Under the pieces are notes generated by a model. The model was given only the letters and a program-made list of their open reading frames with translations, was not told the origin of the DNA and did not search any database. DNA of 64,000 bases from Lineus longissimus (taxonomy: Eukaryota > Nemertea > Pilidiophora > Heteronemertea > Lineidae): NCBI RefSeq assembly GCF_910592395.1, contig NC_088325.1:4371501-4435500 (forward strand), in the 5' to 3' direction. This document shows positions 39,143 to 60,383 of the stretch, in pieces (positions within the stretch are counted from its first letter, which is position 1; every line of letters starts with the position of its first letter). Made by a program: the position numbers and the translations under genes.

Positions 39143-39514
39143 GACTGTTCGTTCACTTCGACAACACTATACTAAAAACCTCGCTAAAACTAGACCCATA
39201 TCATAGTCATAACTTGTTACTGTTACTCAGCCACAGTCCAACAATGGACCGGTTTCTTTTGCATAGTAACTGCTTAGATAATAAAAAGAAACTCAATTTG
39301 GTTAATACGAGCCAACCAGGCTTTTATCAATAATTGACCGCTTGTCTATAACAAGGCCTATTCGGTAACATCGTGTACTGGTTCCCTTATAGTCCGCCGG
39401 GGTAACTATAGTTGACCTGGTGGATTGTTCGTGGAATTCGGGCATCCTGCCACGAGCCTCCCAAAACTAGAAACATCATGTGACCGGCTATCATTGGCTG
39501 GCCCTTATAGGGCC

Positions 39515-39523
39515 TATATATAA
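39515..39523 (+). promoter_or_regulatory. LTR TATA box
   Basis: tatatataa, about 30 bp before a likely start site near 39545. It drives the genomic RNA, and the copy at 60070-60078 sits in the 3' LTR. Confidence 0.7.
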
Positions 39524-39657
39524 ACCAGACCACAGAGCGCCCATCTGAGAGAGAGAGCTAGACCAGGAAGAACATCAGGGCTAAAAAGGGAAAACATACT
39601 AAGGCCGTTTAAGAAGACCTCTCGAGTTTTGTACATCTTCCAAAATAAAGATCAAGG

Positions 39658-39663
39658 GTAAGT
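39658..39663 (+). promoter_or_regulatory. Candidate major 5' splice donor
   Basis: aagg|gtaagt lies only 9 bp after the AATAAA in the 5' LTR. It could supply the common donor for spliced env and accessory messages. U1 snRNP binding so close to the signal could also suppress premature polyadenylation in the 5' LTR. That last point is inference from retroviral precedent. Confidence 0.5.
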
Positions 39664-39828
39664 CCAAAGAATTGCGTTATTATCTTCGTGGTCGGATGAC
39701 CTTGCCATAAACATATATAGGGGAAGGATCTCTAGAGACAGACGGTCGAGCATCTGACCTCTGGGAGGCCGTGGACATTTCCCCCTCCAAACGTGACGGC
39801 TCGGGGCGGTTCACGCCCGTACGTTACA

Positions 39829-39838
39829 TGGTAGCAGA
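39829..39838 (+). promoter_or_regulatory. Primer binding site
   Basis: tggtagcaga starts exactly at the LTR end and is complementary to the 3' end (tctgctacca) of eukaryotic initiator methionine tRNA. Complementarity beyond 10 nt is not evident. Confidence 0.7.
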
Positions 39839-39872
39839 CGTCTCTCAGAGATTATTCCCTTTCGTTCTCTCT

Positions 39873-39985
39873 CCAATTTTCGACCCCATATTTGTATATT
39901 CCAATTTTCGACCCCATATTTGTATATTCCAATTTTCGCCCCCATATTTCGTATGTTCCGATTTTCGGCCCCGTATATTGTATGC
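39873..39985 (+). repeat. 28-bp tandem repeat in the leader, four copies
   Basis: ccaattttcgaccccatatt plus tgtatatt is repeated exactly at 39873 and 39901. Two diverged units follow at 39929 and 39958. It lies between the primer site and gag, where packaging or dimerisation signals normally sit. Confidence 0.85.
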
Positions 39986-40263
39986 CCCATCCGATTTCGT
40001 ACTATCTCGTAAAATATGCATAATTGTGGTAGGTGTTGCTGTAAGTGTCTTTATGCAGTAGCCTTATGCCTAAATGCTCTAATACGTTTATTAATGATGG
40101 TTGCTGGTGTTCTACCACCTGTAAATTCTTGCTAAACACATGGTATTAGGCGTTCCTTCGGTGGAGGTTAACAAACACAACAGGTACAGACCTATCGTCA
40201 AGCTCAAATCCAGACTTAGCCACCTGTAAAACTTTTATCATCCCCGTCGGTCACGCAGTTTTC

Positions 40264-42009
40264 ATGCCAGGCTTTAGGAAGCGTCATTTTCTGCGGTCAG
40301 GTGGTGATATTCCCCCTCAGGAATCTAGTGACGCCCTGGAGTCTGACCATGAATCTGCTCAGTCTGATGAATTGGATTTTCCCGAATCATTTAAAAAACT
40401 ATTAGAGAATGCTAATAAATCCTTAGACGAGGCCTTAGAGTCAAACCAGAACCAGCAACGTGAACTGGATACCTTAATTAATGGTAGCCAAAGGGCACCC
40501 TCAGGTTTTACAGAATACATCAAACCACGTAAGTCAGTTGCCTGGTCCATTGACAACACTTTTGATCCTACGAGAGCTAGACAACCGTTTGCACCACAGC
40601 AAGATAACGATTCAAATTTTAAATCTCAGCCTACTTCTAAGTCTCCAAACCAAAACACTTTAGACTGGGGCCAAGATCTGTGCGACCAGGAAGAGCGCCG
40701 TCTCAAATCCAAAAACGACACAAGCCGTAACGAATGCAACGTACCAAATATCAAATTTGAGTCAAACAAAAACACTCCTGATACTGACCTTATGTCACAA
40801 TCTCCGGTTGTACAGAAAATTCAACAACCTTCAGCTCCCACAAGTGAAGAACTGACGACTCCAACAAATCCATTCTTATTGCAACAATCCAGTGAAAAAG
40901 GCATATCCAGTCCAATTTCCCATTCAACACCAGCTCCTTCCTCCAAAATGTCGCAAAGCGACAAACTTGATCACTCCACTCGTGTCTGGGACACTATTAA
41001 AAAGGGTTTTGAAGATATGATTCCAACCACAGCAATGAACGTCACACAAGTGAGATTACCCGAGGTTAAATTAGAAACTTGGCGGGGTTTGTCAGACTCC
41101 CAATCATGCAAAGACTGGTTAACAAGGTTTTCCCTATACACACAAACAAAAGGCATTCGTACTGAAGATAAACCGGCTGTTTTTTCCTTGTTCCTTCGTG
41201 GCCCGGCGTGGCAGTGGTTACTTAATCTTCCCCCAGCTTCCCGTGCAGACTGGGATACACTAGCAAAAGCGTTCTTGGATCATTTTGAAAATGAGAAATT
41301 TCGATTTGTCAAGCTGAACAATCTGATGTCTCGCCAAATGGGTCCTACTGAAACTGTGGATGCCTATGCCCAAGACATATTGGACAACTGTATGCGCCTA
41401 AGTGTAACTGACGAGGAAAAGCTGAGTTATTTTTTGAGAGGGTTACGACCGGCAATTCGAGGGTTTGTATTACGTTCAGCTCCCGCATCCTATGACCAGG
41501 CATGTGTAACAGCCAGGCTTTATGAAGCAACAGAACAATTAGATCCTTCACCAGCTCCAGCTGCTGCAGCTATTGTGGCTGCTATAGATCAATTGAGGCC
41601 ATCAGCGGTAAGTCCCAAAGAGGACACGGACAACAAACTTGAAAGAATGATGAAGAATATCCAGAAAGAATTAGATGGTATCAAATCTTCTATTGGCCAC
41701 TCATCCTCATTTAGGACACCAAGAGGTCTGCAAGGGCAGATAATATGTAATTGTTGTGGGGGAAATCATCATGAATCAACATGTGAGCGTAACATCCCCG
41801 AGGAATCACGTTGTTCGAGTTGTAACCGTTTTGGTCATAGTACGAGAGAATGTTATTCTAGGTCTAGACCACAGCGTGGAAGTTGGCAGCCGCGAAATAA
41901 TAGGTGGAATAATGACAGTAGGCCTCGTAGGTTTAATTTTAATCAACAGGATGCTGTTGCCGGTTTTCGGCCTAACCAGGATAGAACCAACAATCAGCCT
42001 TTAAACTAG
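40264..42009 (+). CDS. gag: Gag polyprotein, 581 aa
   Basis: The structural protein of the particle. Residues 1 to about 235 are polar, rich in S, Q, N and P, and probably disordered. A retrotransposon gag (capsid-like) domain spans about 270-425, with the landmarks WRGLSDSQSCKDWLTRF, GPAWQWLLNLP, F..HFE and LSYFLRGLRP. Near the C-terminus are two zinc knuckles: a variant (CNCC.....H...C, about 41746-41785) and a canonical CX2CX4HX4C (CSSCNRFGHSTREC, about 41812-41853). An Arg-rich end follows. The stop TAG at 42007-42009 directly follows a slippery heptamer. The start ATG is the first in frame after the leader. No disruption seen. Confidence 0.92.
   Translation: MPGFRKRHFLRSGGDIPPQESSDALESDHESAQSDELDFPESFKKLLENANKSLDEALESNQNQQRELDTLINGSQRAPSGFTEYIKPRKSVAWSIDNTFDPTRARQPFAPQQDNDSNFKSQPTSKSPNQNTLDWGQDLCDQEERRLKSKNDTSRNECNVPNIKFESNKNTPDTDLMSQSPVVQKIQQPSAPTSEELTTPTNPFLLQQSSEKGISSPISHSTPAPSSKMSQSDKLDHSTRVWDTIKKGFEDMIPTTAMNVTQVRLPEVKLETWRGLSDSQSCKDWLTRFSLYTQTKGIRTEDKPAVFSLFLRGPAWQWLLNLPPASRADWDTLAKAFLDHFENEKFRFVKLNNLMSRQMGPTETVDAYAQDILDNCMRLSVTDEEKLSYFLRGLRPAIRGFVLRSAPASYDQACVTARLYEATEQLDPSPAPAAAAIVAAIDQLRPSAVSPKEDTDNKLERMMKNIQKELDGIKSSIGHSSSFRTPRGLQGQIICNCCGGNHHESTCERNIPEESRCSSCNRFGHSTRECYSRSRPQRGSWQPRNNRWNNDSRPRRFNFNQQDAVAGFRPNQDRTNNQPLN
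42000..42006 (+). promoter_or_regulatory. -1 ribosomal frameshift site T_TTA_AAC
   Basis: In the gag frame the codons read cct tta aac tag, so the heptamer tttaaac is in the correct register for tandem -1 slippage. The -1 frame (cta ggt agt ...) is the pol frame and is open from here to 47384. This is the canonical X-XXY-YYZ arrangement. A downstream pseudoknot was not tested. Confidence 0.85.
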
Positions 42010-45000
42010 GTAGTAGGGTCCATGCACAACACAATATTAAGGGGCGTGGATCCGTTAATAAATCAGCTCATAAAGACAGGACTAGTTTCACTCAAGGTGC
42101 AATAGGCGGCAACGATGAACCAAAAGTAGCATCCATACAATTTAAGCACCCACATAAGGGAACAGAGGCATCCATTGAAGAGGATGCAGATTTGTTACAA
42201 ATTGTTGAAAAGTTCATGGTATTGGTAGAAAAAGCGACGAGAATTAAGTTTCTAAAAGATCAGATGCAAACAGGGGAGTATCGTGCAATACTCAAAAAAC
42301 TGGAAGAATTGTCTAAAATGCTCCAAGATAAAACTTATAACCAGGGTAATTTTCAAGCTGTTATCAAGCTTGTAAATTCAATAGTAACCTTGCAAAACAA
42401 AGAGTTTGAGATCACTAAATCTCCACCATCACTACCACGACATCTGAAACGGACACTGATGTCCGAAGTACACCAAAATTCTCTTTCAAAGTCACTAACA
42501 AAAATAGACCAAAAAGTAGAAGACCTTGGCAACAACCAAGTTCCAGATACAACATCAAGCTTTAAATCTACAGGCAATATCTCCACAGAACGTACAGAAA
42601 CACCAATATTAGGCGCAAAGCAAAAGGTAGGAATTCTACATAGGGGGCATGGAGAAAACGATCCCACAGGTATAATACAAAATACTGGCAAGACTAACAC
42701 CTCTATTGAACAGGTAAAAGTATATGCAGACATCTATACGCCAACCACACTTCCCCAAAAGGAAGCACATTCTAACGATTACGTTACAGAAAACAACATT
42801 CTTGTAACTCAAAACCTCAAGGAAGATCAGAATGTACAACCCAAGCTCTGCCAAGAAACAGTATCCGACAGTTTCTCTCACCAAATAAGGGATAGCCCAC
42901 CGGTATCAGTACCACGCAAAGTACAGAACTTAACAACTAACACTAAAAACAATACCGTTCTCAGGTGCCTAGACACTACACCTCCACCTATTCCTCCCAG
43001 GAAACACATACCGAACAGTGCACAGGTAGCACCAAGTTACTCAGAAATGGACGCAAACAACATACCAACGATAACAAAAACATCAGGCAATGCTACCAAA
43101 CAACTGGCTGACCTTCAGCCTGATCTTCCACAGAGTTCAGCCTCAGATAACAACAAAGAGCAAGGCAACAAATTAGTTCTAGAAAAACCTTCTCAGAATG
43201 CTAACGACATACCTAGGTTAGGCCAACTTTTACATACCCCTAAAACGGCACAAAATGGTAAAGACCATTGTAAAAATAATATAACTGCAGCAAAACCGAT
43301 TTCAGAAACCAACCTATACAGTACTCAGAAGGAAACCTCCTTGGCGGATACAAATGGCTTCGCGAACACACCAACAGTACTCGCTTCGGTTGCTTCAATA
43401 ATCGAAGCACAAATAGGAACAAATCAGTATCAAATACTAGTAGATTCCGGAGCAGCCATCTCAATCATAAATGAAACCTTGGTAATGCGTGACCCCAAGT
43501 TGAAGTCTTCCCCTATCAGTAAAGGACTTTATACTCAGGCTGCTGCAGTTAACGGGGAAAAGATTAAGCTGAAAGGTACGATTACTATACCAATGCAACT
43601 AGCTGATTCAACACTACAACAGGTATTTTATATCATCCCTCATAAGGCCACTGTGCAACAAATCATACTTGGCAGGGATTTTTTGAATGCCTATGACGTC
43701 TCTCTAAACTTTGGATCAGGCCAACTTCTTATTCCTGGAATTAAATCAGTACCATTATTAGGCTCAATCTCTTTGGATGAATCCACCCCTGTTTTCCTCA
43801 AAAAAGATTGTTGTCTTCAACCAATTTCAGAATCATTCCTGACCATTGATACTACAAATGCATTACCTGAGGGCACTGACAGAATGGTACAGGAACCACC
43901 AAACATATACATCCAACATAAGGTATGTGTGGCGGCTAGTCTCGTTACTGTAGAGAAACAAAAAGTTCCCATCAAAATGTTGAATTTGAATAAAACCAAG
44001 ACCATCATACCTGCTGGAACATTGGTTGCTTACCTAGTCCCGATACCGGAAGTCTCCAACATGAATGTAGTAACAGAGGGCGATGACTTACTATCAGCAC
44101 CTCAGCATTTCCTTCCACACAAAGATGTTGTTCCTGCTCTACCAGGGAAGTCACCAATGGATGTTATAGATTTGTCAACAGCGGATGTAACAGAAGACCA
44201 ACGCCAGGAGTTAACCAGCTTCATAAAAGCAAACGAGGACCTTTTTGCAATGAGTATATCTGATCTTGGGGTTTGTACCGTAGGCTCACATGATATGAAA
44301 TTTATTGGCACGAAACCGGTGGCGCAGAAGCCATATCGACTTGCACCAAATCGACGAAAAATTTTAGATGAAGAAGTTCAAAAATTAGTTGACCAAGGGG
44401 TCTTGGAACCTGGTAATAGTGATTTTGCAGCCCCCCTTATCCTAATAAACAAGCCTGACAATTCTTATCGTCTATGTTGCGATTTTCGACGACTGAATGC
44501 AGAAATTGAAAAAAATCGGGGCCCAATCCCTCATTGTCAAAACCTTTGTGACCTAAGCTGTGCGGACAGTCCAAAATTGTTCACTTCACTCGACTTGAAA
44601 TCTGGATATTATCAAGTATCCATGACAAAAAATGCCCAACGCTTATCATCGGTGGTGTCCGAATCGTCGCAATATATTTGGCGCGTCCTTCCATTCGGGT
44701 TATCTAATGCTCCATCTACATTCTGCAGAATCATGAGTATTGTCTTGTCAGGACTGGTTAACACGAAATGCTTAGTGTACCTTGATGATATTCTTATCTG
44801 GGGCAAAGATTTCGATGATCACCTGCAAAATTTGAAACTCGTTTTTTCCAGGCTACGGCAAGCAAATTTACGAATGCATCCAGCAAAGTGTAGCATCTGT
44901 AAAAAAGAGATCAAATTCCTTGGCCATATTATCTCCGGGGAAGGCACCAAACCTGACCCTAAGAAAACAGAGGCAATAGGTAAGATGGCCCAACCAAAAT

Positions 45001-47384
45001 CCCAGAAAGAAATCAAACGATTTCTAGGAGCTGCTAGTTACTACAGGAAGTTCATATATAGATTCAGTCATATTGCTGCTCCCTTGGTAAAACTACTAAG
45101 ACAAGACGAACCATTCACCTTCACGCCGGAATGTGTAAAAGCGGTCGAAACATTGAAGAAAGCATTGACGTCAGAACCAATCTTTTTACCTCATCCGGAT
45201 GATAAATTACCCTTCATACTTGAAACGGATGCTTCAACCTACGCTGTAGGGGCAGTCCTATCACAGGAAAAAGACGGCCAGGTACATCCAATATCATATT
45301 ACAGTAAGACATTAACAAGGACTCAGCAACGTTATCCAATCACAGAACTCGAATTACTTGCGTTATGCCAGGGATTAAAGGCCTTCGAAATGTATCTAAG
45401 TTATACAACCTTTCGGGTCAAAACTGACCACCAAGCACTTGTGTACTTAATGAAAAAACGGACCGAGAGTCCTCGATTAATGCGCATGAGTCTAGCTATT
45501 CAACAATATAGTTTTCAGCTTACGTATGCCGATGGAAAGTCCATCCCAGTAGCAGATTTTTTGAGTAGGCTTATCCCGGAGGAGGAAGAAAACAGCATTG
45601 CAGCGATCATAGTTCCAACTACTAGACCTACCTATCCGGTAACATTGACAGCCTTGGAACACTTCCAAAGAGAAGATAAAGAGTTGGGGCCTATCATCAC
45701 ATATTTTACAGATGAAACACTCCCTGATGATAAGGTAGCAGCTACTTACATACAAAACCAGGCCGAAAAATATGTTCTTGATAATAACTTATTAAAAAGG
45801 GTCGTATTATTTCCGGAAAAGTCGGACTCAACAATAAAAACTCCTAAAACACTGTATCTTACAGCAATACCAACCACACTAATCAACCAAGTGCTGGAAT
45901 GGTCTCATGATAGTCCAATGGGAGGACATTTTGGCGTTCGGAAGACTACGCAACGGTTACAATGGAAATACCATTGGCCCACAATGCGGAAAGACATTAG
46001 GTATTGGATCAAGACGTGCATGGCATGTCAGTGCAAAAGATTCGATACTAAACATGCAAAAGCTCCACTCCTCCCTATTGTGGCATCACACCCCTTCCAG
46101 CTCATGGTAATGGATTGTAAAGGCCCATTGGTAAAATCAAAGGAAGGATTTCAACATATCTTAGTCTTGGTAGACGCATTTTCCAAATTTACAATACTAG
46201 TACCTATTCGGAGTACTACCTCCACAGAGGTAGGAACAAAGATATTTGAAGAGGTAGTCTGCAGATATGGCCCGCCTGATAAAATCCTTAGTGACCAGGC
46301 CTCATATTTCATGAGCAAGCAAATGAGGCATCTCTGTAAACTCTGTAACATTACCAAGCTCTGCGGCGCTGCCTATCATCCCAGAACACAAGGTCTGGCT
46401 GAAAGAGTTAACCGCTGGTTAGCTGAAGCATTGGCAAAATATTGCAACAAGGAAAACACTGACTGGCCAGTGTACTTGCAACCAATTTCTTGGGCGTTTA
46501 ATTCAAGCGTGTGTGAAAGCACGGGCTATTCACCATATTTCTTGATGTTTGGTCGATTGCCAAAGACATGTCTAGACTTATCGTTGCATCCTATACAAGA
46601 GGATGAGAAGGACCCTCCAGTGGATGAACATATAAAAACTATTGTACAGGCTCTAGATATGGCCCAAATGTTAGCTAATAAACAATTAAAAATCACTAGA
46701 GCCCAGATGAAGCAGCGTTTTGATAGGACAGCAGTAGAACCAAATTGGAAACCAGGTGATTTGGCATGGGTCCTCACACCAAAGCCAAAACGAACCAAAG
46801 GGCTAAGCCGTTGTTTGAGCAATCTGTGGGCAGGACCATTTATGATCGTTGCAGAAACCTCACCAAAAACCTTCAAGTTAAGGTCGGCACAGAATCGCAA
46901 TTTGCCGACGCCAATCCATTGTGACAGGTTGAAACGTTTTTATTATGATGATAGATTAGCATTACAGGTTCCTGAAGCACCTTGTGAGGGCGAGGCAATT
47001 CCAGATAATTTTCTACCAACAGATGCATGTGAACCACTTCAAGACAACGTAGTTGCAACAGGTGAAGCTATCAATCAGAATGAACATAGTAACAATAACG
47101 GACAACAACGAAAAGAAATTCCTGATGATACCGTTATACCTGTAAACTTGGCAGCACCAGAATCACAAAATGATAAAGAAATCACTGACAAGGTGTTTGA
47201 GATTGAAAAGGTACTCAAGCACAGACGTCGTAACAAGGAATCAGAATTTCTTGTCAGATGGCTTAACTATGGCCCTCGGCACGACTCGTGGGTTAAAACC
47301 GATGACCTGGTGCCCCCTGAGCTTGCCACAGAGTTTCTAGCTGAGCTGCAACAAAAAACAAAGCGGAAATCCCGGAAAAGGTAG
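42006..47384 (+). CDS. pol: Pol: protease, RT, RNase H, integrase, chromodomain
   Basis: Expressed as Gag-Pol by -1 frameshifting (1792 codons in this frame). Order by nucleotide: an extra N-terminal region with proline motifs (42006 to about 43400); aspartic protease (LVDSGAA, about 43440; ILGRDFL, about 43667); reverse transcriptase (DLKSGYYQ near 44594; YLDD near 44778); RNase H (ETDAST near 45222; TELELLAL; KTDHQALVYL); integrase zinc finger (H..H from 45905, CMACQC near 46018); core with Asp in MDCKGP, Asp in SDQASYF and Glu in GLAERVN; a GPF module (about 46828); and a C-terminal chromodomain (VLKHRRRNKESEFLVRWLNY, about 47210-47350). All catalytic residues I can locate are present. The chromodomain places it with chromoviruses. 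Confidence 0.93.
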   Translation, partial: LGSRVHAQHNIKGRGSVNKSAHKDRTSFTQGAIGGNDEPKVASIQFKHPHKGTEASIEEDADLLQIVEKFMVLVEKATRIKFLKDQMQTGEYRAILKKLEELSKMLQDKTYNQGNFQAVIKLVNSIVTLQNKEFEITKSPPSLPRHLKRTLMSEVHQNSLSKSLTKIDQKVEDLGNNQVPDTTSSFKSTGNISTERTETPILGAKQKVGILHRGHGENDPTGIIQNTGKTNTSIEQVKVYADIYTPTTLPQKEAHSNDYVTENNILVTQNLKEDQNVQPKLCQETVSDSFSHQIRDSPPVSVPRKVQNLTTNTKNNTVLRCLDTTPPPIPPRKHIPNSAQVAPSYSEMDANNIPTITKTSGNATKQLADLQPDLPQSSASDNNKEQGNKLVLEKPSQNANDIPRLGQLLHTPKTAQNGKDHCKNNITAAKPISETNLYSTQKETSLADTNGFANTPTVLASVASIIEAQIGTNQYQILVDSGAAISIINETLVMRDPKLKSSPISKGLYTQAAAVNGEKIKLKGTITIPMQLADSTLQQVFYIIPHKATVQQIILGRDFLNAYDVSLNFGSGQLLIPGIKSVPLLGSISLDESTPVFLKKDCCLQPISESFLTIDTTNALPEGTDRMVQEPPNIYIQHKVCVAASLVTVEKQKVPIKMLNLNKTKTIIPAGTLVAYLVPIPEVSNMNVVTEGDDLLSAPQHFLPHKDVVPALPGKSPMDVIDLSTADVTEDQRQELTSFIKANEDLFAMSISDLGVCTVGSHDMKFIGTKPVAQKPYRLAPNRRKILDEEVQKLVDQGVLEPGNSDFAAPLILINKPDNSYRLCCDFRRLNAEIEKNRGPIPHCQNLCDLSCADSPKLFTSLDLKSGYYQVSMTKNAQRLSSVVSESSQYIWRVLPFGLSNAPSTFCRIMSIVLSGLVNTKCLVYLDDILIWGKDFDDHLQNLKLVFSRLRQANLRMHPAKCSICKKEIKFLGHIISGEGTKPDPKKTEAIGKMAQPKSQKEIKRFLGAASYYRKFIYRFSHIAAPLVKLLRQDEPFTFTPECVKAVETLKKALTSEPIFLPHPDDKLPFILETDASTYAVGAVLSQEKDGQVHPISYYSKTLTRTQQRYPITELELLALCQGLKAFEMYLSYTTFRVKTDHQALVYLMKKRTESPRLMRMSLAIQQYSFQLTYADGKSIPVADFLSRLIPEEEENSIAAIIVPTTRPTYPVTLTALEHFQREDKELGPIITYFTDETLPDDKVAATYIQNQAEKYVLDNNLLKRVVLFPEKSDSTIKTPKTLYLTAIPTTLINQVLEWSHDSPMGGHFGVRKTTQRLQWKYHWPTMRKDIRYWIKTCMACQCKRFDTKHAKAPLLPIVASHPFQLMVMDCKGPLVKSKEGFQHILVLVDAFSKFTILVPIRSTTSTEVGTKIFEEVVCRYGPPDKILSDQASYFMSKQMRHLCKLCNITKLCGAAYHPRTQGLAERVNRWLAEALAKYCNKENTDWPVYLQPISWAFNSSVCESTGYSPYFLMFGRLPKTCLDLSLHPIQEDEKDPPVDEHIKTIVQALDMAQMLANKQLKITRAQMKQRFDRTAVEPNWKPGDLAWVLTPKPKRTKGLSRCLSNLWAGPFMIVAETSPKTFKLRSAQNRNLPTPIHCDRLKRFYYDDRLALQVPEAPCEGEAIPDNFLPTDACEPLQDNVVATGEAINQNEHSNNNGQQRKEIPDDTVIPVNLAAPESQNDKEITDKVFEIEKVLKHRRRNKESEFLVRWLNYGPRHDSWVKTDDLVPPELATEFLAELQQKTKRKSRKR

Positions 47385-47432: not shown

Positions 47433-47490
47433 ATCCAACTGCACTCATCAAAACCATCTGATAAATATCTTCAATCTACATATAACAGGT

Positions 47491-50100: not shown

Positions 50101-50202
50101 GATGACCACTTGTCAGAGGATGGTGGGTTGCTAACGACTTGAGCAGACAACACACTCTCCTCTAGAATAAGAGCACCTTTTCATCTTTTTCATTTTCATT
50201 GT

Positions 50203-50204
50203 AG
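50203..50204 (+). promoter_or_regulatory. Candidate splice acceptor before the 64-aa ORF
   Basis: catctttttcattttcattg then tag: a strong pyrimidine tract ending 10 bp before the ATG at 50215. Confidence 0.5.
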
Positions 50205-50214
50205 ATTCAGCCAA

Positions 50215-50409
50215 ATGACTACCAGCGACCCACTACGAATTCCACCTTTGGAACAGGCAGAAATTGTGAAATTGTGTCATCCGTCAAAGTACTTTCAGGC
50301 CATAGTCGACAGGGGCGTGGGCTGCACGTACATGTTTCGCTCTCTTAGTTGGCGCCGTTGGCCAATTGCCATCCTAGGAGGTGTCACCTCTGAGAGGCCG
50401 GAACAATAA
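50215..50409 (+). CDS. Small accessory ORF, 64 aa
   Basis: An intact frame after a strong splice acceptor, between env and the zinc-cluster ORF. The sequence (for example LEQAEIVKLCHPSKYFQAIV) is not recognised: no signal peptide or membrane span. Position and acceptor suggest a small accessory protein from a spliced message, but a frame this short could occur by chance. Confidence 0.4.
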   Translation: MTTSDPLRIPPLEQAEIVKLCHPSKYFQAIVDRGVGCTYMFRSLSWRRWPIAILGGVTSERPEQ

Positions 50410-50521
50410 ATATCTAAACGTTGCCCCCCGTTATACCTCGACTCTGGCTTGTGGGTCTTTAGCATCAATAAGGTATGATTCTTTATAATTATTCACCACG
50501 TCTCCCTACTCTTTTACTTGT

Positions 50522-50523
50522 AG
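50522..50523 (+). promoter_or_regulatory. Candidate splice acceptor before the zinc-cluster ORF
   Basis: ctccctactcttttacttg then tag ends 2 bp before ATG 50526, an arrangement similar to the one before the 64-aa ORF. Confidence 0.5.
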
Positions 50524-50525
50524 CC

Positions 50526-51593: not shown

Positions 51594-54500
51594 GCACTCA
51601 CCATAAAGGTGCGCAGAAAAAAATTCTAAAAAACCCGTTTGTCTGGGAACGGACAGTACTCAAACAAAAAAAAAAGAACCTCCATGTCGTTCGCATTGGC
51701 ACCCACAATGTGAACCCTATTCAGCATTGGCACCAATTGACCAACAGGCATAAAAATGTATTGAGTCCAGAACATGTGTTAGAGGTAAAAGGCATATCGT
51801 CAGAAAAACATTAGGCTCCACCGACATGAGCATGGGAGTCAAATTATAGTATATAAATGGACTAGTCTATCACTTCCGAGCGGCGGTTGTTCCTGAATGT
51901 CAATGGCACATCTAATCTCCGTAAAATTTATGCATGGTCTGAGGTAAGGTAGTAACCTAATCCTAACCAATCACAAAAAAAAAAAAACATTTTTTTTTTT
52001 TACTTGCCATCAGAGTAACAAATAAAACTAGATCATTAACCTTGATGAATTTAACAAGAAAGTCAGGAGAGTCAAGATCGCGATATAACACGTATACCCC
52101 TCCTACCTTATGGTCCGAAACGTGCAGGTAACCTGCCAAAAAGGTGCCACATAGCTCGGCCTATTATAGCCCTGCGCTTCTACGTAATCGGGCCCGGATA
52201 TTCAGTCAGAAGACGTTCAGGCTGATGTTCTGGATGTACCGGCGAGGTAAGAAGGACACAGTTCCTGGCACCACACTTAACCAAAGGACATTATGGAGGT
52301 AATATCCCAGCCTGCGTTTAAAGATCTAAAGACCACTGACTGTTGAATGGCGTCAATTAGAGAAAACACCTCAGACTCACCATGTCATACTCCAATTAAT
52401 CTCCAATATACTATCTATATTAACGCCAAGAGGAGACTTAACCTCTGTGCTGTTGCGGAACAAGTGTCTTGCTCGGCGGTAAAAAACAAACAACTCAAAT
52501 TAACACCGTCACTGACTCCTATGATCAACGGCTGGGCCTGATCACAATCTAAACAAGTAAAATATGCTAAGAGCCTCGTAAAAAACGGACAGGTATATGG
52601 TTCATTTTATAACAAGGTGGAACGCATAGGTAAACAACTCATTTTGTTTCTTTAAGGTAGGGCGTCGGTGCGTTGCATCAGACTGTCCAACTGAGCAATG
52701 TACGTATATTCCAGAATTTAGAAATGACTTACTGCATTGTAAACAAATTATAAGGTTTGGTATGGGTTGGCAAGGGCCACGCTGGATTGTGATAGCGAGG
52801 ATAATATGTTATTAATTGTGTCATAGGCAAAGTACCTAAGAATATAGTGGATTATAAAAAATCCGCATTGAATAAATGCGCGAGGTCATTCAAGTTTCTG
52901 GTCCAACCAGCATGACTGATGTCGCGAACATAAGAAGCAATTGTATATAAATTGTTGTTTATCCAGATGCAGTTCCTGGATTGACAAAATATAAGCAGTA
53001 ATTCAAATGTTGTTACCCCGACGTAGTTCCGGGATTGACGGCGCATAAGATGAGTGACTCCTAAAGCGGAGTTACTTCTAGGAAAAGAAGTAGTGGTTCA
53101 CCCAGAGGTTGTTCCTGGGTTAACAAAAAGATGTCATGATAACAGGTGGCCCAAATCAAATCATATCACGACGTAACGGTTCCAAAATATCAGAGAAGAA
53201 TGAGTAGAACCATAATGAAGTCATATATGTAAAAGCTTAAGCAAGTAATCAATTAATGCGTCAACGAACAATTATATCATCAAATACTCAACCACAGTAC
53301 TGAAAGTAAGAAAAACCATGAATCAATAATATTGCTCAGCACGATATAAAGTGCGAACCAAGGGTTGAGGTAGTCTGTCACAACGATCTTCCTGTAAGGT
53401 CAATGCTGAAAAGGTCATAATAAGAAATCGAATGTGCAATAAACCCTGTATTTCATCATAAATGTCACATGCTCCATTCGTCAAAATTGCATAAATTATC
53501 GGTGAAATTACACAAATAACAATGTTATTGTATAAACGGGTCAGAAGCTGGTAGTTGGTTGGTTTCATTGCCTGGCCTTATGCTGAAATCAGAAAAGGCA
53601 CCCATACATGTTTCCGAAGCCTTGGCAAGACTGTCCTCGTTTTCACAGGAAGAAATCATGCAGTAGACGCAATGCTAATCTCAGTAATGCGGAAACAAAT
53701 GTCCAGCACCAGGAGACCAAGTCTGAACTCCTTGGGCTTGTCCTGCATCACTTCTTGGGGTTACTGGACGACTTGTCAAATAATTATAGTCCAATTCTAC
53801 ATTTCACTTCATCCTTTGTCGGTATCACGTCTGTTGCATACGCGAAAATATGTTTAAAACTTAAGCCTGTAAAGGTACAAATAGTAACACTGGTACTTAT
53901 ATAAGGTACCCATGCGTGATTTGGTTTTGTCAATATATTGTTGCCTTGGGCATCAGCTTTCTTCGGTAACTATAGGGTTACGCAGTGTGCATCCGAGAAT
54001 AATATTGGCCTCCATCCAGACAGGGGCATAAACATCATGCAAACGAGGTGCAACGGGATTACCTGTAATTCAGCGATAGATCAATGCACCACACATGAAG
54101 AGGAATGCTGAAAACAAAAAACAATGAGTCAAGACAAATGATAAAGGTAGTACAGGTTGATGGAAGGCTCCCTTTGTATGAGGGCCAAGGATACCTTCCC
54201 GGTAAAAATGTATTATTTAAAGAAACTTATCTATAACTGTGTGTTGTACATAGTCAATTTGAATGGCTACGGTCGTGACGTTCCCGTTACCCTTAAGGTA
54301 CGGTGAACTTCAAACTTGGATTTTTGGATCAAAAATTATTGAACCTTAGGTGTGTGTTTGAATTTAACGAGTGTGTATATAGTCAATAAGATAAGACGCT
54401 GTTCCGAAGACTTGTGGGTATGCAACACAAGATCTTCCACTTTGGATTGTTTCGAACAAATAACCTTTTGATCGTGCATAGGGACCCAAGTTGTCACATC

Positions 54501-55307
54501 GCTCCTTTCTACAACAGCATATTTTAATGCTGCAATTCGGTAAATGTAAACTCTTCAATTGGCCGGAATGACTTGTCAAGTATTCTCCCTCATGCCTTGA
54601 TGCCCATTACCTCTTGTTAGCTGGTGTGTCGATCTGTATCGGCCAGGGAACATGCGAGAAGAGGCATAATGATTGGAGAGGCCTTGGTCTGAAAGAAATT
54701 ATCAGATAATGTTAAATTGACAAATGGGCTGGAAATAGCTTGGTGAAACATATACGCCTACCCCATTTGACATTGTCCAGTCTGAGTACGATTACATGGT
54801 TAGATAGTCGAAGGTGACGGTCCCTTGCAAACATCAGATGAACTATAAGATATGTGTACATAGGATGTAACCTTCATATGATTTAAGACTAGTTGAAAGT
54901 CTCGTCCACAGTATAGTAGTGGTTCCCTCAACTTGGGTTTTTTCTGGTTTTTGCTTAGTGTAACGTGTTAGACAAGTTTCGGTGTTAGCGTCCGTATAAC
55001 GACACTATCGGTATAACTTACGGGTTGCTCAGAAATTGGGAAGATAAGAATGAGCGTTATAAAAATAAAAACCATAACTACAGGTAGTTTAACTGAGACA
55101 ATCTACACCTCAATTAAAAGGACATTCGCTGCATGTTGGGATCATGAATTACGAAGTGGTCTCAGGGGTATCTCTCGGTACAAATATTACTAAAACGTAT
55201 TATAGGCGTATCAACTTAACGGGTGTTATCAAATAAGCATCGGCCAAAGGGAGGACGACAGACATTCAGCCGAAGCACTCAATAAAAGTCAGTTACCTTA
55301 GTTAAAA
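51594..55307. other. 3.7-kb non-coding part of the LTR element
   Basis: No convincing ORF. Poly(A) and poly(T) runs lie near 51670 and 51980-52000. Three related blocks with g(c/t)agttcc-gg-ttgac or gttgttcctgggttaac occur near 52960, 53017 and 53100. The plus ORFs at 53555-53904 are unrecognised. It may contain regulatory sequence, the 3' UTRs of both sense and antisense genes, or exons I cannot recognise. Confidence 0.5.
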
Positions 55308-56095
55308 TTAAGACGTGTCCATGGCCGTCTCATGATCGTCATCGCTGTGGTTCAGATCGGTTAGAACCTCTGCCACTGGCATAAGCCTCACGGTCGCCTC
55401 GGGAGTGAAGGCGTCCGCGGCGGTGACGTCCTCAATCTCCACACCAACCATGACTTGTAGGTCTTCTTCCCATATGGTTGGGCGGAACCTCTTCTCGACT
55501 TTATCGGTCCGAACCATCCTGATTTTTAGCCGTGGCTTCGACTCACCGGGCATCATGTAGAGGTAAGGGGTGTACGGACTCTCCGTAAACTCCAACGAAA
55601 TTCCGTGGAGAAGGGTTCCGTCCACCCCCCACATCGCATCTGTGAGATGACGTCGCACTCGTCCGGTGATATCGAACCACCACATGGTTTCGCTCGGGGG
55701 TTCTAGGAGCTCTCCTTCGGGAGGACCCAACGGGACAAAGTCGTCCAACTTCTCTTCACTGGAGGAAGCAACGTTGGGCTCCCGATGGTTCCGTGAACAC
55801 CCCGGCTGTGGTTCGGACCTTTGGGGGCTGGCTTCCTTGTTAGCCGTCGGGGGTGTGACTTGGCGGGTCTCCCCGCGTGCCGCAAGTAGGTGACCCCTCA
55901 TGTCAAGGTCACGGCACCGCGGTAGTGCGACGCAAAGCGTCGCCTCCCGAGACCGCGCCTCCTCACAGGGTTCCGCGTACTCCAGTGCCTCAGATGGGTA
56001 GACACGGTACCACGGTACGGCGACGCAAAACGACGCCGCCCGGGACCGCGCCTCCTGGCGGAGTTCCGCGTATTCCTCTGCCCCGAATCGACGAC
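55308..56095 (-). CDS. Antisense gene exon 4 (internal duplication, acidic end)
   Basis: Acceptor ttctttttatag. It begins GRRFGAEEYAELRQEARSRA and soon repeats a diverged copy (EYAEPCEEARSREATLCVAL). Then comes a P/S/E-rich linker, a folded-looking part (MWWFDITGRVRRHL, ... LKIRMVRTDKVEKRF), and an acidic tail ending DDDHETAMDTS. The stop codon is at 55308-55310. No AATAAA was seen on the minus strand in the next 300 bp. Confidence 0.72.
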
Positions 56096-59000
56096 CTATA
56101 AAAAGAATAAAGAAATAAACAATATTTTGCATATGGGGTTCAAAAACAAATAACTGTTTATCATATAAAAATGTCACCCAACCTTAGAACACTCAGAATT
56201 CAAACAACACCTTAAAAAATGTTGGTAACCTGTGTTTCCTAGAATGACGACTGTCTCGCCTGTAATTGCTTGTCAAAATCAAACAGAGTTACACCTCAGC
56301 GTACCGAGGGTTACCCATCCGTAAGTGTAATGACAAACCATATTGTTTAACTAGTATATGTAGCTTAGCTAAAATCGTTGCGTAAAACGGACTTGACCCA
56401 CCAAAGTAGTACCTAAGTTAACCGCGGTAGCACCGCATGGTGCGCGGCTGGAACATCGTTAACGTCAATCATAATGTATATTAACATTTTCGCCTCGTTG
56501 GCATAAATGAACATAAATACCAGCCTCATTACCTGGATAACCGGTGCATTAATTTGAAGTACCAATAACTAGTATCTCTCCATTCATAGGTAAAGTTATT
56601 CCATGTGTCCGAGGGTATTGCAACAAATTCTACAGTTAATGGCCAAACCTACCTAGATCTTTGGGACCTGGGAAAAGCGGCCTCGGGGGTAGCTCGTGAT
56701 GATCTTGTTCGTAGATCTGCTCCGCCCCCTCCGGCCAGTCCTTGCGGGTGCCTGTATTTCCGTGCAGGTTGAGCACGTGAGGCCTAACGTCCAGGCACCC
56801 CGCACAACGATAGGCGGCTATCCACCGCCTCATATAGGTCTGGAAGCTGCCCCTCCTTCTCATTGCTGTTATTGCACCCCCGCGCCTAGGGTGTTCGGCG
56901 AACATCCGCACGAGTGCAGTAGGAGCGTAGGGGGCGTCGTTCCAGAGGTGTTTGTGTACCTCTACGGCCCGTGTCATCCGCTCCATGACCCGGCGGTTCG
57001 CCCGACACTCCTTCTTTGAGCGGTGACATGCGGCTGGGCACATGCCACAAGCGATTTCCGCCCGACTGTACAGGTGGGTTGTAACCACCGCTGCTGTACT
57101 TAGCCACTTTAGGCTAGGCGGCAATACAGCAGCTTCCCATGGCTCAAGTTTGACCTGACACACAAGGCCAAACATTACAACTCTCTAAAAAAAAAAAGGA
57201 AAAGGTCGTCCATAAACAATCTTAAGTTACCTATTCTTAAATTTTTATTGTTCTTGTTTCATTAAATGTGTTATTCCTTCATAAATAGTTCTCACCATTT
57301 CACTAGTTAATAAACAAATCATAACCTCATGATGCACATGAGTAGTTGAAGTCACCACGTCCGCCTCCTATCTCCCAGGTACCGTGCTGTTTAACATCAT
57401 TCACACCCTAAACAGTTGTATATAGGCTGGTTCCGACCCTACGTCAGATTTCTACAGGTACACCTTCGCCAACAGCGATAACAAGTCTACCTTAACCAGT
57501 GTATCATGCCATGCCAAGATAACGCTACATTACTATGCTCATAACTCAACTATTAATGGGTAATTAGTTGTTTAACATCTTCACTTAGCAAACGTCAGCA
57601 TCTCTTACCTATTTCTGATGGGCGGTTTTACAACATCATTCTGACGTGCTCATTAGACATGCGGCATCAATTTGTTACACTCTTGGGTTAGTACCTAGTT
57701 AGAATATGGCATGCCACGGTTATCAATAAGGTTAGCGTTAATATAGTTTATATTAACAAATCAACAATAGGGCGAATGGAACCTATGCTATTAATTACCA
57801 TGAATTGTGCAACTGGTGTTATGAATGTTGGTTGTCATGATTCCAGCTTTATGATGGGTACGGTTAGTGTATGAATTTTATATTGTGTTCCTCCACAAAC
57901 GGTTACTGTTTTTTCAGGTGGAGAAAACGATTCATTATGGTAAAAAAAAAAAACAACGTTTTTTTGTAAATATTAATATGTTCAGCGAATAATTTTTGTT
58001 CTTCCATATTTCATATTGTAACAACGTTGAAGGTTCCAACAGTCAAAACACCGTGAAAACGGCTTCTCGACTTGAAATCTTAACCGTGGTCACTTATGGT
58101 TGTTGTTCGAACCAATTGTTTACATTGATAACTTGTGGTCGAACATAAACAAACCAGACAACCAGCTGTAATTAGTCAAAATTATCTTCCCATTTGTCTA
58201 GTCATCGTTGCGATCCAGGGAAAAAACCTAACTAAAACAGACCCGCAGCTGGTTAGTAATGGTACTCAAGGTTATCCTGCCATCATGACGTTATCGAATG
58301 AAATTTCACTCCCAGCGTCGTGGTGCCAGGCAAAAAGAAAAAATTGTCCCACACTCTGTCTTTATCATCAAATTAGTCATGGGGCCATGACTCTTAGATT
58401 TGGTCGAGGGGAGCGTTTAATTGAAGCGTTTTGTCCTTTATGAACAAAAACAAAAGGAAGGCAAACAAATAAGGTGCAATCTACAGGCAGAGTAAGTAGC
58501 AGACCTCCGGCTACAGTTAATATATACCTTTGGTGAGAAGGGAATTTGGCCTTCAACGTCAGCGGACAGGTCGGCGCTCATATTATTCATGGGGGGTGCT
58601 GAAAGTTGAGTTATTAGTATGAACAAATGATTTCGACTTTTGAAATTGCGGTTATGTGAAAAGGGTATCACGTTATGTTATGTACTATATATATATATAT
58701 ATATGATTACTACTTAGAAGACAATGATACGGCCTGCAACTTGAACGACTATACGAGGAAGGAATCATCAGAATCGAGAGCAGCGGTACACATAACGATC
58801 GGAGTCAACTCAATTATACGTTGCAGATCGGAATCAAATCGAGAAACGATCGATAACGTCGATTAACGATACATTTTACGTTCTTGCATCTTTTATGAAC
58901 TAAGTATGAAAGGGACATGACACTATTTTGGCGATGGACTTGATCGTAGAATTTGGACATATTTACATATTTATTTAAGTACAACCTTGCGGACAGGCAG

Positions 59001-59332
59001 GAAAGTACGTTCCTGATTCACTTCAGATTATATTTGAATGGAGAAATGGTGGAAATTGCAAAGTGATGCACGCGGCATAGAAGTTAAGATAAAACCTTTC
59101 AGTTAATGCATGAATGTTCATTAAAAAATTGTATATAAATTGTATAAAAAAGGTATTTTAGGGAGGTCTTCTATAAATCGAGTATTTTAAATCGGAAGAA
59201 TAGTCGAAATATGAGTAGGGAAGTGTTAAGTAACTTACCTTGAAAGGACAAGATCGGTAAATTGAAATGGGATTGAAAATTGATAGTCTCCGTTGTGATC
59301 TTGTCGGCTGGAAGTTCCCTGGGTATCTGCAT
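55308..59332 (-). CDS. Antisense four-exon gene inside the LTR element, about 494 aa
   Basis: Exons on the minus strand: 59239-59332, 58528-58598, 56653-57184 and 55308-56095. All introns are GT-AG, phases are 1, 0 and 1 at the three junctions, and the sum is 1485 bp (495 codons with stop). TATAAAA lies at 59351-59357. The exon-1 ATG is only 25 bp below that box, so translation could instead begin at ATG 58588-58590 in exon 2. The product has a Cys/Arg-rich middle (exon 3), a duplicated 20-odd-residue block (start of exon 4) and a C-terminal acidic end. I recognise no family. Exons 3 and 4 are clearly more GC-rich than the rest of the element, hinting at separate origin. Antisense genes near the 3' end are known from HTLV-type retroviruses; any functional parallel is inference. 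Confidence 0.72.
56653..57184 (-). CDS. Antisense gene exon 3 (Cys/Arg-rich)
   Basis: Follows a long pyrimidine acceptor (poly-T then tag) and ends at donor gtaggt, phase 1. It encodes about 177 residues with a cluster CGMCPAACHRSKKEC and a later CAGC, which could bind metal, and basic segments (RANRRVMERM, AMRRRGSF..YMRRW). No known domain recognised. GC-rich compared with flanking introns. Confidence 0.7.
57185..58527. other. Intron 2 of the antisense gene, otherwise empty
   Basis: AT-rich sequence. The plus ORF 58135-58443 (102 codons) is unrecognised and probably accidental. Confidence 0.5.
58528..58598 (-). CDS. Antisense gene exon 2
   Basis: 71 bp between acceptor caactttcag and donor gtatat. 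It reads PPMNNMSADLSADVEGQ then IPFSPK. It takes phase 1 and leaves phase 0. It contains two in-frame Met codons that could serve as the start. Confidence 0.65.
58599..59238. other. Intron 1 of the antisense gene
   Basis: Contains a (TA)n run at 58685-58704 and nothing recognisable as coding. Confidence 0.5.
59239..59332 (-). CDS. Antisense gene exon 1
   Basis: Open from ATG 59330-59332 (MQIPRELPADKITTETINFQ...) to donor gtaagtt at 59238, phase 1. If transcription starts about 30 bp below the TATA box, this ATG would fall at or just outside the transcript, so the exon may be partly or wholly 5' UTR. Confidence 0.55.
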
Positions 59333-59350
59333 GCTCTCGGAAGAACCGGT

Positions 59351-59357
59351 TTTTATA
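59351..59357 (-). promoter_or_regulatory. TATA box of the antisense gene
   Basis: TATAAAA on the minus strand in ggtataaaaaccgg, followed within about 120 bp by a perfect donor (aag|gtaagt). It lies about 570 bp inside the 3' LTR boundary, so the antisense gene does not seem to depend on the LTR promoter. Confidence 0.6.
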
Positions 59358-59919
59358 CCACAAATATCAGGTAGCAGGGCGGCAGAAGATTTATGACGTT
59401 CCTTCCATTGACAGGTGACTGAGCTAGTACAATTTAAAAAACCAGAGTCAGGCTACTAGACATGACTCCCTTTGTGAGCATGCCGGCCCTGGCTTATTTT
59501 TTGAGGAACTTTTGTGTTTTATAGCTCACCAAACGGTGATAGTGGTGAGATATGAGGTGGGCAAGTTTCGCAGCGGTTTTGCTGGAAAGTTATTGGCCTA
59601 TTGGAACGAATTGGTTGTGGATACTATGCTGCCCTGATGCAAAAATTTAAATCCGGGTTATATTGAAATTGTTCTCTCTCTGGTCATTCAACAACATTCC
59701 TAAGTAAATTATAAATATATGTAACAAAAAACAGATGGAGCTCCTGCAAGTCTGGGAACGTTTGGTCAAACAAAGCCATGACGATTCGGTAAATACCTCT
59801 TAAAAGGTACATTATACAAAAATTAGCATACATCGGTATTGCCCATGGACCAGCCAATTGATTAATTACCTGCCGGTTGAATTTTCCTCTTTAACATTGG
59901 GACAATGTTTTTCATCTAG
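59358..59919. other. Non-coding stretch before the 3' LTR
   Basis: Upstream region of the antisense promoter and 3' untranslated part of the genomic RNA. No ORF. Confidence 0.5.
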
Positions 59920-59928
59920 CTGTGGGGA
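59918..59928 (+). promoter_or_regulatory. Weak polypurine tract
   Basis: agctgtgggga abuts the 3' LTR. Only the last bases (gtgggga) are purine-rich, shorter than typical for Ty3/gypsy. Given intact LTR ends it must still suffice, or this copy used a longer signal that I cannot see. Confidence 0.45.
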
Positions 59929-60383
59929 TGTACTGGTTCCCTTATAGTCCGCCGGGGTAACTATAGTTGACCTGGTGGATTGTTCGTGGAATTCGGGCAT
60001 CCTGCCACGAGCCTCCCAAAACTAGAAACATCATGTGACCGGCTATCATTGGCTGGCCCTTATAGGGCCTATATATAAACCAGACCACAGAGCGCCCATC
60101 TGAGAGAGAGAGCTAGACCAGGAAGAACATCAGGGCTAAAAAGGGAAAACATACTAAGGCCGTTTAAGAAGACCTCTCGAGTTTTGTACATCTTCCAAAA
60201 TAAAGATCAAGGGTAAGTCCAAAGAATTGCGTTATTATCTTCGTGGTCGGATGACCTTGCCATAAACATATATAGGGGAAGGATCTCTAGAGACAGACGG
60301 TCGAGCATCTGACCTCTGGGAGGCCGTGGACATTTCCCCCTCCAAACGTGACGGCTCGGGGCGGTTCACGCCCGTACGTTACA
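59929..60383 (+). repeat. 3' LTR
   Basis: Same length and, by eye, same sequence as 39374-39828. It is followed by the duplicated target atcg and Harbinger copy 2 sequence. Confidence 0.93.

What the first reader, a model, noticed from the sequence alone, without database searches (positions are those of the whole stretch)
39374..60383. 21-kb Ty3/gypsy element with the layout of a complex retrovirus
Seen: intact gag, frameshifted pol with chromodomain, env-like ORF, two further ORFs behind splice acceptors, an antisense spliced gene, and paired LTRs. Known: Ty3/gypsy elements are usually 5-8 kb with two or three ORFs. Inference: this is an undescribed lineage that acquired accessory genes and may behave as an endogenous retrovirus-like agent.
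Basis: partly seen in the sequence, partly recalled or inferred. Interest (0 to 1): 0.92.

Follow-up and report, generated by a model that had tools for sequence, protein, structure and literature searches.

The report
Giant retrovirus-like element in ribbon worm
A 21,000-letter jumping element in a ribbon worm carries virus-like envelope, spliced accessory and backwards-read genes, so its layout recalls a complex retrovirus although its enzymes belong to the Ty3/gypsy family.

Summary
Positions 39374-60383 are a complete Ty3/gypsy element: identical 455-bp LTRs, a 4-bp target duplication (an uninterrupted paralog of the site lies in the window), gag with a UUUAAAC slippery site, pol with chromodomain, F-type env, a 355-aa ORF3 behind a splice acceptor, and a two-exon antisense gene. 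The host is very probably Lineus longissimus (Nemertea).

The extra 10 kb is not private. A C8 copy with two LTRs and a target duplication has all these genes in order, with gaps and nested inserts. ORF3 is under purifying selection (dN/dS 0.25-0.42 where significant) and has a 22%-identical counterpart behind env in a sister family (pol 45%, env 42%). Antisense exon B is constrained against divergent copies (0.32-0.37), not measurably against near ones; exon A and the 64-aa ORF2 are not shown to be.

A C10 copy lacks env by an exact GT-AG excision, so env behaves as an alternative intron. In both families the env start codon lies inside a donor-like AG|GTATG. C10, C7 and C15 copies lost all or part of the antisense gene by deletions that are not splice-like.

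Env-carrying gypsy elements are known across animals. Apparently new: the size, conserved ORF3, spliced antisense gene and splicing fossil. Functions and RNA are untested.

The parts
39374..39828 (+). 5' LTR, 455 bp, TG..CA; TATATATAAA at 39515 and AATAAA at 39644; candidate splice donor G|GTAAGT at 39658
   Evidence: identity and ends; motifs read by eye
39370..39373 (.). target-site duplication ATCG (second copy 60384-60387)
   Evidence: uninterrupted paralog of the site at 37485-37560
39829..39838 (+). putative primer binding site TGGTAGCAGA (resembles the 3' end of initiator-Met tRNA, recalled, not tested)
   Evidence: read
40264..42009 (+). gag (first ATG of the 619-codon frame): Ty3-type capsid and two zinc knuckles (knuckles read by eye)
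42000..42006 (+). TTTAAAC -1 frameshift heptamer directly before the gag stop; identical in the C10 and C8 copies
41985..47384 (+). pol frame, 1799 codons: protease, RT, RNase H, integrase, chromodomain
47433..47488 (+). 56-nt leader exon (inferred) between the env acceptor (..TTATTCCAG) and the donor AACAG|GTATG
   Evidence: donor use fossilised in the C10 copy; same layout in the sister family
47491..50100 (+). env, 869 aa: signal-like N terminus, RSKR cleavage motif at 124, two further membrane-like segments, Baculo_F match
47489..50204 (+). env-containing alternative intron (GT..AG) precisely missing from the C10 copy
50215..50409 (+). ORF2, 64 aa, directly behind the acceptor at 50204; no significant selection signal
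50526..51593 (+). ORF3, 355 aa, behind acceptor CTTGTAG (50523); zinc-type motif C-x2-C-x21-CC-x4-H-x2-C-x14-C-x2-C; purifying selection; homolog in sister family
51594..55307 (+). internal region without long frames of known domain; most of it present in C8, C10 and C7 copies, with gaps and inserts
56653..57184 (-). antisense gene exon A (ATG at 57175), acceptor TTTTTTTTTTTAG before it, donor CTAG|GTAGGT after it; no significant selection
55308..56095 (-). antisense gene exon B, acceptor CTTTTTATAG, in frame with exon A (436 aa in all); purifying selection against divergent copies
57185..59928 (+). non-coding 3' internal region up to the 3' LTR; would hold the antisense promoter and 5' exon (inferred)
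59929..60383 (+). 3' LTR, identical to the 5' LTR

Best explanation
This is a recently inserted, env-carrying, chromodomain Ty3/gypsy element of 21.0 kb in a ribbon worm whose gene layout has converged on that of complex retroviruses. Shown from sequence: genomic RNA would give Gag and, by -1 frameshift at UUUAAAC, Gag-Pol (signal present and conserved in two copies); env has been excised as a GT-AG intron in one copy, and the donor contains the env start codon; ORF3 lies behind its own acceptor; ORF3 and antisense exon B evolved as proteins. Inferred: a leader donor joins a 56-nt exon in front of env; leaving the AG|GTATG donor unused gives env, using it skips env and gives downstream accessory mRNAs; ORF3, with a RING/PHD-like zinc module, helps replication or counters a host factor, perhaps as a ubiquitin-ligase-type protein; the antisense protein regulates the element from a promoter near the 3' end, as HBZ does in HTLV-1; Env allows cell-to-cell or germline entry as in insect errantiviruses; deletion copies that lack these genes move with the help of full copies.
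For: LTRs, target duplication and domains. A C8 copy with two LTRs (10 mismatches, 3 gaps) and CCAG flanks has gag, pol, env, ORF2, ORF3 and the antisense gene in order, interrupted. The C10 copy lacks exactly 47489-50204; among 400,000 random junctions 0.57% could be read as GT-AG and 0.005% also had the pyrimidine tract, and the other four deletion junctions examined are neither GT-AG nor CT-AC in any register. Sister family: same pol-env-ORF3 order, same AG|GTATG donor/start overlap, pol 45%, env 42%, ORF3 22% identity, E 6e-17; chromodomain in its pol. ORF3 dN/dS 0.25 (p 0.0015), 0.38 (p 0.002), 0.38 (p 3e-6), 0.42 (p 5e-5); wrong frames 0.81-2.09. Antisense exon B 0.32 (p 2e-4), 0.34 (p 1e-6) and 0.37 (p 0.016).
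Against: No RNA was examined. Antisense exon A and ORF2 give no significant selection, and antisense exons are not less diverged than their intron (C8 exon B 2.04%, exon A 3.41%, intron 1.97%; L066 5.16%, 7.66%, 4.86%). Exon B against C8, C15 and two C8 duplicates is not significant (p 0.09-0.39), and for C15 the right frame (0.54) barely differs from one wrong frame (0.61). C8 copies have a frame break in exon B. Three copies lost all or part of the antisense gene. Two of six ORF3 comparisons are not significant (0.29 p 0.13; 0.58 p 0.14). ORF3 reaches no curated Pfam cut-off shown, C7 has Ser for one motif Cys, and its single-sequence model failed (pLDDT 38). No homolog of the antisense protein was found outside this family.
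Confidence: 0.72

Rival explanations
1. Ordinary env-carrying gypsy element whose extra 10 kb is passenger DNA (captured host or nested transposon sequence) that merely contains open frames.
For: The antisense gene or part of it is missing from C10, C7 and C15 copies; long stretches (51594-55307, 57185-59928) hold no frame with a known domain among those tested (two of about 100 aa); some copies hold nested inserts.
Against: The genes are in the C8 copy in the same order; an ORF3 homolog stands behind env in a sister family with 45% identical pol; purifying selection on ORF3 with wrong-frame controls, and on exon B against divergent copies; the antisense ORF matched only C19, C15:0.99 Mb and C8:15.05-15.28 Mb, 20 matches from 22 scored candidates.
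Confidence: 0.15
2. The antisense region acts as RNA, not as protein: antisense transcripts regulate or feed silencing, and the ORF is a by-product.
For: Exons are no more conserved than the intron; exon A has no significant selection; non-coding antisense transcripts exist in other retroelements (PMC7264820, passages).
Against: Exon B changes against the divergent copies favour third positions (22 of 40 against L066; 54 of 100 against L067) and, for L066, synonymous sites in the right frame only (wrong frames 0.78 and 1.62; L067 was not tried in wrong frames); clean in-frame splice signals.
Confidence: 0.2
3. The C10 env loss is a chance deletion, not a reverse-transcribed splice product, so the splicing model has no direct support.
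For: The same copy has two other internal deletions that are not splice-like.
Against: Exact GT-AG with 84% pyrimidines before AG, a 0.005% event among random junctions, and it removes env with little else; donor and acceptor motifs conserved in the C8 copy.
Confidence: 0.05

Closest known systems
Env-carrying gypsy elements of metazoa (errantiviruses / insect ERVs; Chary and Hayashi 2025, Senti et al. 2025)
   Same: Ty3-type gag-pol, F-type env with signal, furin-like site and membrane segment, env from spliced RNA
   Different: 21 kb rather than the 5-8 kb that the finding gives as usual; chromodomain; env start codon inside a donor-like site; ORF3 and antisense gene behind env. The first paper was not held, so overlap with its elements is unknown; Senti et al. 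(PMC12992720) seen as passages
Chromoviruses (chromodomain Ty3/gypsy)
   Same: chromodomain at the pol C terminus
   Different: classical chromoviruses lack env and accessory genes (recalled); no RT tree was made
Complex retroviruses, HTLV-1 with HBZ in particular
   Same: env and accessory genes arranged for alternative splicing, spliced antisense gene near the 3' end (HBZ layout recalled)
   Different: RT is closest to Ty3 (7q5b E 9.9e-97) and far from retroviruses (best about 3e-30); homology of the accessory genes was not detected, and was tested only by Pfam and PDB sequence
Plant Grande, RIRE2, Retand elements with antisense ORFs between pol and 3' LTR
   Same: long pol-3' LTR region with an antisense gene; own promoter reported for Grande (passages of PMC7264820 and PMC11963269)
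   Different: plants; the Retand paper reports no known domain or membrane segment in sense ORFs there; the antisense gene here has a predicted intron and no Pfam match
Bdelloid rotifer LTR elements with extra ORF3 (PMC5408684, passages)
   Same: animal gypsy-like elements that captured additional ORFs
   Different: there GDSL, DEDDy or paramyxovirus-like env; here F-type env plus zinc-motif ORF3 plus antisense gene

Membership tests
Ty3/gypsy (Metaviridae) | LTRs with TG..CA and 4-6 bp target duplication | tested here: met
   matching 4-bp flanks at solo LTRs L014, L022, L026, L029
Ty3/gypsy (Metaviridae) | protease-RT-RNase H-integrase order and Ty3-like RT | tested here: met
Ty3/gypsy (Metaviridae) | tRNA primer binding site | not tested
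   TGGTAGCAGA follows the LTR; no tRNA of the host was compared
Env-carrying gypsy / errantivirus | F-type env downstream of pol | tested here: met
   Baculo_F E 2.8e-8, 33.3 bits over a cut-off of 24.1; RSKR and membrane-like segments
Env-carrying gypsy / errantivirus | RT places within the errantivirus clade | not testable with these tools
Chromovirus | chromodomain at pol C terminus | tested here: met
   PF00385 E 3.8e-8
Chromovirus | RT places within the chromovirus branch | not testable with these tools
   as above
Retroviridae | RT closest to retroviral RT | tested here: not met
   by PDB sequence: Ty3 9.9e-97, 'Enzymatic polyprotein' 8r0s 2e-43 (caulimovirus-type by recall), retroviral about 3e-30 at best
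Complex-retrovirus layout (works like) | env excised by splicing; accessory ORFs behind acceptors | tested here: met
   C10 junction; acceptor motifs; at DNA level only, no RNA seen
Complex-retrovirus layout (works like) | accessory proteins with regulatory or host-antagonist function | not testable with these tools
   only selection on the sequences was tested
RING/PHD zinc finger (ORF3) | match above a curated Pfam cut-off | tested here: not met
   window protein: Prok-RING_1 16.1 bits against 29.1, PHD 8.9 against 24; among the 5 members zf-RING_5 best E 0.012, PF24046 (At4g08330 beta-tent) in 3 of 5 at best E 5.7e-4, cut-offs not shown
Troyka superfamily | CG..CG ends and 3-bp target duplication | tested here: not met
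   TG..CA and 4 bp; definition from PMC12440569 (first of five parts read)

The most novel reading that the evidence does not exclude
A Ty3/gypsy lineage of ribbon worms independently evolved the full organisation of a complex retrovirus: a regulated splice switch in which the env start codon is part of the donor, a conserved spliced zinc-module accessory protein, and a spliced antisense regulatory gene.
Probability: 0.45. Interest if true: 0.82.

Novelty: new variant of a known kind. Interest (0 to 1): 0.64.

Why it matters
Complex gene organisation with spliced accessory genes and a spliced antisense gene is the mark of retroviruses such as HTLV and HIV. An invertebrate Ty3/gypsy lineage with the same plan, young copies and a sister family would allow a direct test of which features of a retroviral genome arise repeatedly once an LTR element gains an envelope, and of how old the env-intron switch is. 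The env-donor overlap gives a simple, testable rule for such a switch.

Tried and rejected
Troyka was considered and rejected on ends and duplication length. A private insertion of the 10-kb block was rejected. Antisense splicing as the cause of the C15 gap (56645-58893) was tested and rejected, no CT-AC or GT-AG. In one search three of the four control junctions were tested one to three bases out of register; one search repeats them with the overlap of the aligned pieces taken into account, with the same outcome. PDB sequence searches of ORF3, the antisense exon-B frame and env gave nothing significant. Viral contigs: no relative of pol, from six peptide patterns. Rfam at gathering scores over 37000-62500: none. 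My first ORF3 and exon-B selection figures used wrong frames (ORF3, exon B); replace them. The listings of eight paper searches showed no report of this element or of a spliced antisense gene in an animal gypsy element; most subscription papers and the key 2025 eLife paper are not held, so absence from print is not claimed.

Left undone: genome searches for antisense exon A and for spliced junctions in either family were asked several times and never answered. A tRNA comparison was not asked.
Full report
WHAT IS THERE. The window lies at G000:C19:4371501-4435500 of a 391.1-Mb genome in 30 contigs. Contig lengths C3 29.08, C4 25.59, C5 23.93, C6 21.66, C7 21.16, C8 20.96 and C10 19.40 Mb agree with the chromosome table of the Lineus longissimus assembly to about 0.01 Mb (PMC8593623, passages). 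Two things do not fit that paper exactly: it gives 32 scaffolds and 19 chromosomes with 99.81% of the sequence, while a match here lies at C20:8.36 Mb, so a twentieth contig is large; a later version or another contig order would explain it (not checked). The host is very probably the bootlace worm, a nemertean.

The element runs from 39374 to 60383, 21,010 bp. Its LTRs are 455 bp, identical, TG..CA. The 4-bp duplication ATCG is confirmed by a paralogous, uninterrupted copy of the target repeat at 37485-37560 of the same window. gag (first ATG 40264) ends in TTTAAAC-TAG, a classical -1 slippery heptamer (recalled), and pol continues in the -1 frame; the site is identical in the C10 and C8 copies. 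Pfam finds capsid, protease, RT, RNase H, integrase and chromodomain, and Baculo_F in env. By PDB sequence the RT-integrase part is nearest Ty3 (E 9.9e-97), then an 'Enzymatic polyprotein' (8r0s, 2e-43; caulimovirus-type by recall), then retroviral RTs (about 3e-30). Env has a hydrophobic N terminus, RSKR at residue 124 before a fusion-peptide-like stretch, and two further membrane-like segments.

Behind env come a 64-aa frame (50215-50409), ORF3 (50526-51593, 355 aa), 3.7 kb without a long frame of known domain, an antisense gene, and 2.7 kb before the 3' LTR. The antisense gene has a strong acceptor before exon A, a donor after it, and a strong acceptor before exon B; the join is phase 1 and in frame, 436 aa.

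OTHER COPIES. The LTR search listed 42 matches; 40 of 59 candidates were scored, and the best 30 were compared by their flanks. That shows solo LTRs with matching 4-bp flanks (L014, L022, L026, L029); 3' ends with identical outer flanks, so probably segmental duplications (eight loci L030-L037, six on C7:9.62-9.74 Mb and two on C13; three on C8:15.05-15.18 Mb); and two further two-LTR insertions. (a) C10:6107858-6122918, flanks CTGC/CTGC, LTRs 456/456 identical, 15.1 kb. (b) C8:15179412-15216315, minus strand, flanks CCAG/CCAG, LTRs with 10 mismatches and 3 gaps, 36.9 kb because of inserted DNA. The C8 copy carries gag, pol, env, ORF2, ORF3 and the antisense region in order, but with gaps against the window of 425 bp (58517-58941), 74 bp (54444-54517), 11 bp in ORF3 (where a 15.5-kb insert lies), 114 bp in env (49480-49593) and 173 bp in pol (44428-44600), and with small indels in pol, env and exon B: it is defective. 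A C7 copy (ORF3 at 13121041, env at 13075552-13078250 far upstream, 3' LTR at 13129010, no 5' LTR in the list) has ORF3 in an open frame of 377 codons, with a 1-bp deletion near its end, but lacks 54980-58708, the whole antisense gene. A C15 copy (3' LTR at 993587) keeps exon B open but lacks 56645-58893, exon A included.

THE SPLICING FOSSIL. Against the window, the C10 copy is contiguous except for three gaps. The first removes 47489-50204, from AACAG|GTATGG to ..TTTTCATTGTAG|ATTCAG: env as a GT-AG intron. Of 400,000 random junctions in the element, 0.57% could be read as GT-AG in some register and 0.005% also had the pyrimidine tract. The other two C10 gaps (50492-51701, 54836-56822) and the C7 and C15 gaps, 4 of 4, are neither GT-AG nor CT-AC in any register; the C10 antisense gap has three shared bases (ATC) at its ends. 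The simplest reading is that this copy was reverse-transcribed from an RNA whose env intron had been spliced out. The env ATG (47491) lies inside the donor, so using the donor removes the env start.

SISTER FAMILY. ORF3 used as query gave 14 matches from 24 scored candidates: close ones on C19, C7, C8 and C15, and distant ones (21-24%) on C6, C14, C8, C4 and C15. Around the C6 locus (L052, L059) pol (45% identical over 1220 columns), env (42% over 837) and ORF3 (22% over 363, E 6e-17) stand in the same order; its pol has a chromodomain, while its env reaches no Pfam family at 0.01. Its env start shows the same device, a TTTCAG acceptor, then AAAG|GTATGAAG, and its ORF3 ATG directly follows CTTCCTCAG; that these sites are used there is inferred. 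The reverse search with the sister ORF3 gave 21 matches from 25 scored candidates, including the window copy (E 4.8e-10) and loci on C11 and C4 next to env matches. No ORF2 stands between env and ORF3 in L052: the gap there is about 100 bp. Thus env + ORF3 is an old pairing. Whether the sister family has LTRs of this kind or the antisense gene is unknown. Env itself is widespread: 51 matches, 50 of 123 candidates scored; 17 of the 51 rows lie in open frames of 780 codons or more without a stop in the match.

SELECTION. Nei-Gojobori counts, Fisher test one-sided. ORF3, 6 comparisons: C8 0.25 (p 0.0015) and 0.29 (p 0.13, short piece), C7 0.38 (p 0.002), two C15 loci, perhaps duplicates, 0.38 (p 3e-6) and 0.42 (p 5e-5), a C8 fragment 0.58 (p 0.14); wrong frames against two of these 0.81-2.09. 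Sister-family ORF3 (no test made): 0.22 and 0.19 against the two more distant copies, 0.34 and 0.75 against two near ones, none computable for the C14 copy (no synonymous change) and no alignment for L057. Env 0.31 (p 1e-4), 0.39 (p 0.018) and 0.39 (p 0.20); pol 0.28 (p 4e-7) and gag 0.36 (p 0.004) in C8; C10 comparisons of gag (0.49) and pol (0.41, 0.55) are not significant. Antisense exon B: 0.32 (p 2e-4) and 0.34 (p 1e-6) against the divergent C8 loci L066 and L067, 0.37 (p 0.016) against L068/L069, which gave the same numbers and count once, and 0.45-0.76, not significant, in 4 other comparisons, two of them duplicates of the C8 copy. Wrong-frame controls for exon B: L066 0.78 and 1.62, L062 0.61 and 1.38, so L062 (0.54 in frame) does not separate the frames. 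Exon A: 0.45-0.73 in 4 comparisons, none significant, one stop in L066; the C10 piece has two changes only. ORF2: not significant in 4 of 4. The copies compared are partly dead, which pushes ratios towards 1, so low values are conservative; but several C8 copies are related by duplication and are not independent. Against a protein reading, the antisense intron is about as conserved as the exons.

ORF3. Eight residues form C-x2-C-x21-CC-x4-H-x2-C-x14-C-x2-C in the window copy; the sister family has the same pattern with x16 in place of x14 (counted by eye); the C7 copy has Ser for one Cys. Pfam gives only sub-threshold RING and PHD matches, and the PDB profile search is insignificant (RNF25 RING, E 0.63). 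A RING/PHD-like module is therefore a motif reading. A PPxY-like PPAY stands near the C terminus of the window protein, PPRAF in the sister (by eye).

HOW IT PROBABLY WORKS. See best explanation. Shown: anatomy, conservation, the env excision in one copy, selection on ORF3 and, against divergent copies, on exon B. Inferred: use of the LTR donor, order of splicing, protein functions, cell entry, help of full copies for deletion copies.

WHAT IS KNOWN. Env-carrying gypsy elements are reported widely in metazoa (Chary and Hayashi 2025, cited in PMC13172572 and PMC12859917; passages; paper itself not held). Env is typically translated from spliced RNA in insect ERVs (PMC12992720, passages). [quoted passage not shown] Extra ORFs in animal LTR elements are known in rotifers (PMC5408684, passages). 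The listings of eight library searches showed no paper with this combination in an animal; that is no proof of absence. Verdict: a new variant of a known kind, strong in anatomy, open in function.

Noticed in passing
25653-27387 (-): Fragment with DUF5641 and an integrase-like stretch, a BEL/Pao-type remnant by recall.
   Followed up: no
31773-34786 (-): Two long frames with RVT_1, non-LTR retrotransposon-like by recall.
   Followed up: no
37000-39373 and 60384-62480: The element sits inside a repeat with direct and inverted copies on both sides (arms up to 254 nt, 98% complementary), as if the target were a larger nested or palindromic repeat.
   Followed up: partly
39872-39983: 28-bp tandem repeat, 3.9 copies, in the leader between LTR and gag.
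   Followed up: no
L030-L037 (six on C7:9.62-9.74 Mb, two on C13): Eight loci with the same 3' end and the same outer flank, so segmental duplications probably carried the 3' LTR.
   Followed up: partly
L060:3829-4347 (-): A 173-codon frame that looks like a Tc1/pogo-type transposase remnant (by eye) nested in the C7 copy.
   Followed up: no
G000:C15:6341165-6341959: A third ORF3-like frame (21-24% to both families) next to a 69% copy of ORF3, perhaps a third subfamily.
   Followed up: no
G000:C8:15.228-15.276 Mb (L050, L066, L067): Rearranged cluster of element pieces in which an antisense segment lies inverted relative to env and ORF3.
   Followed up: partly
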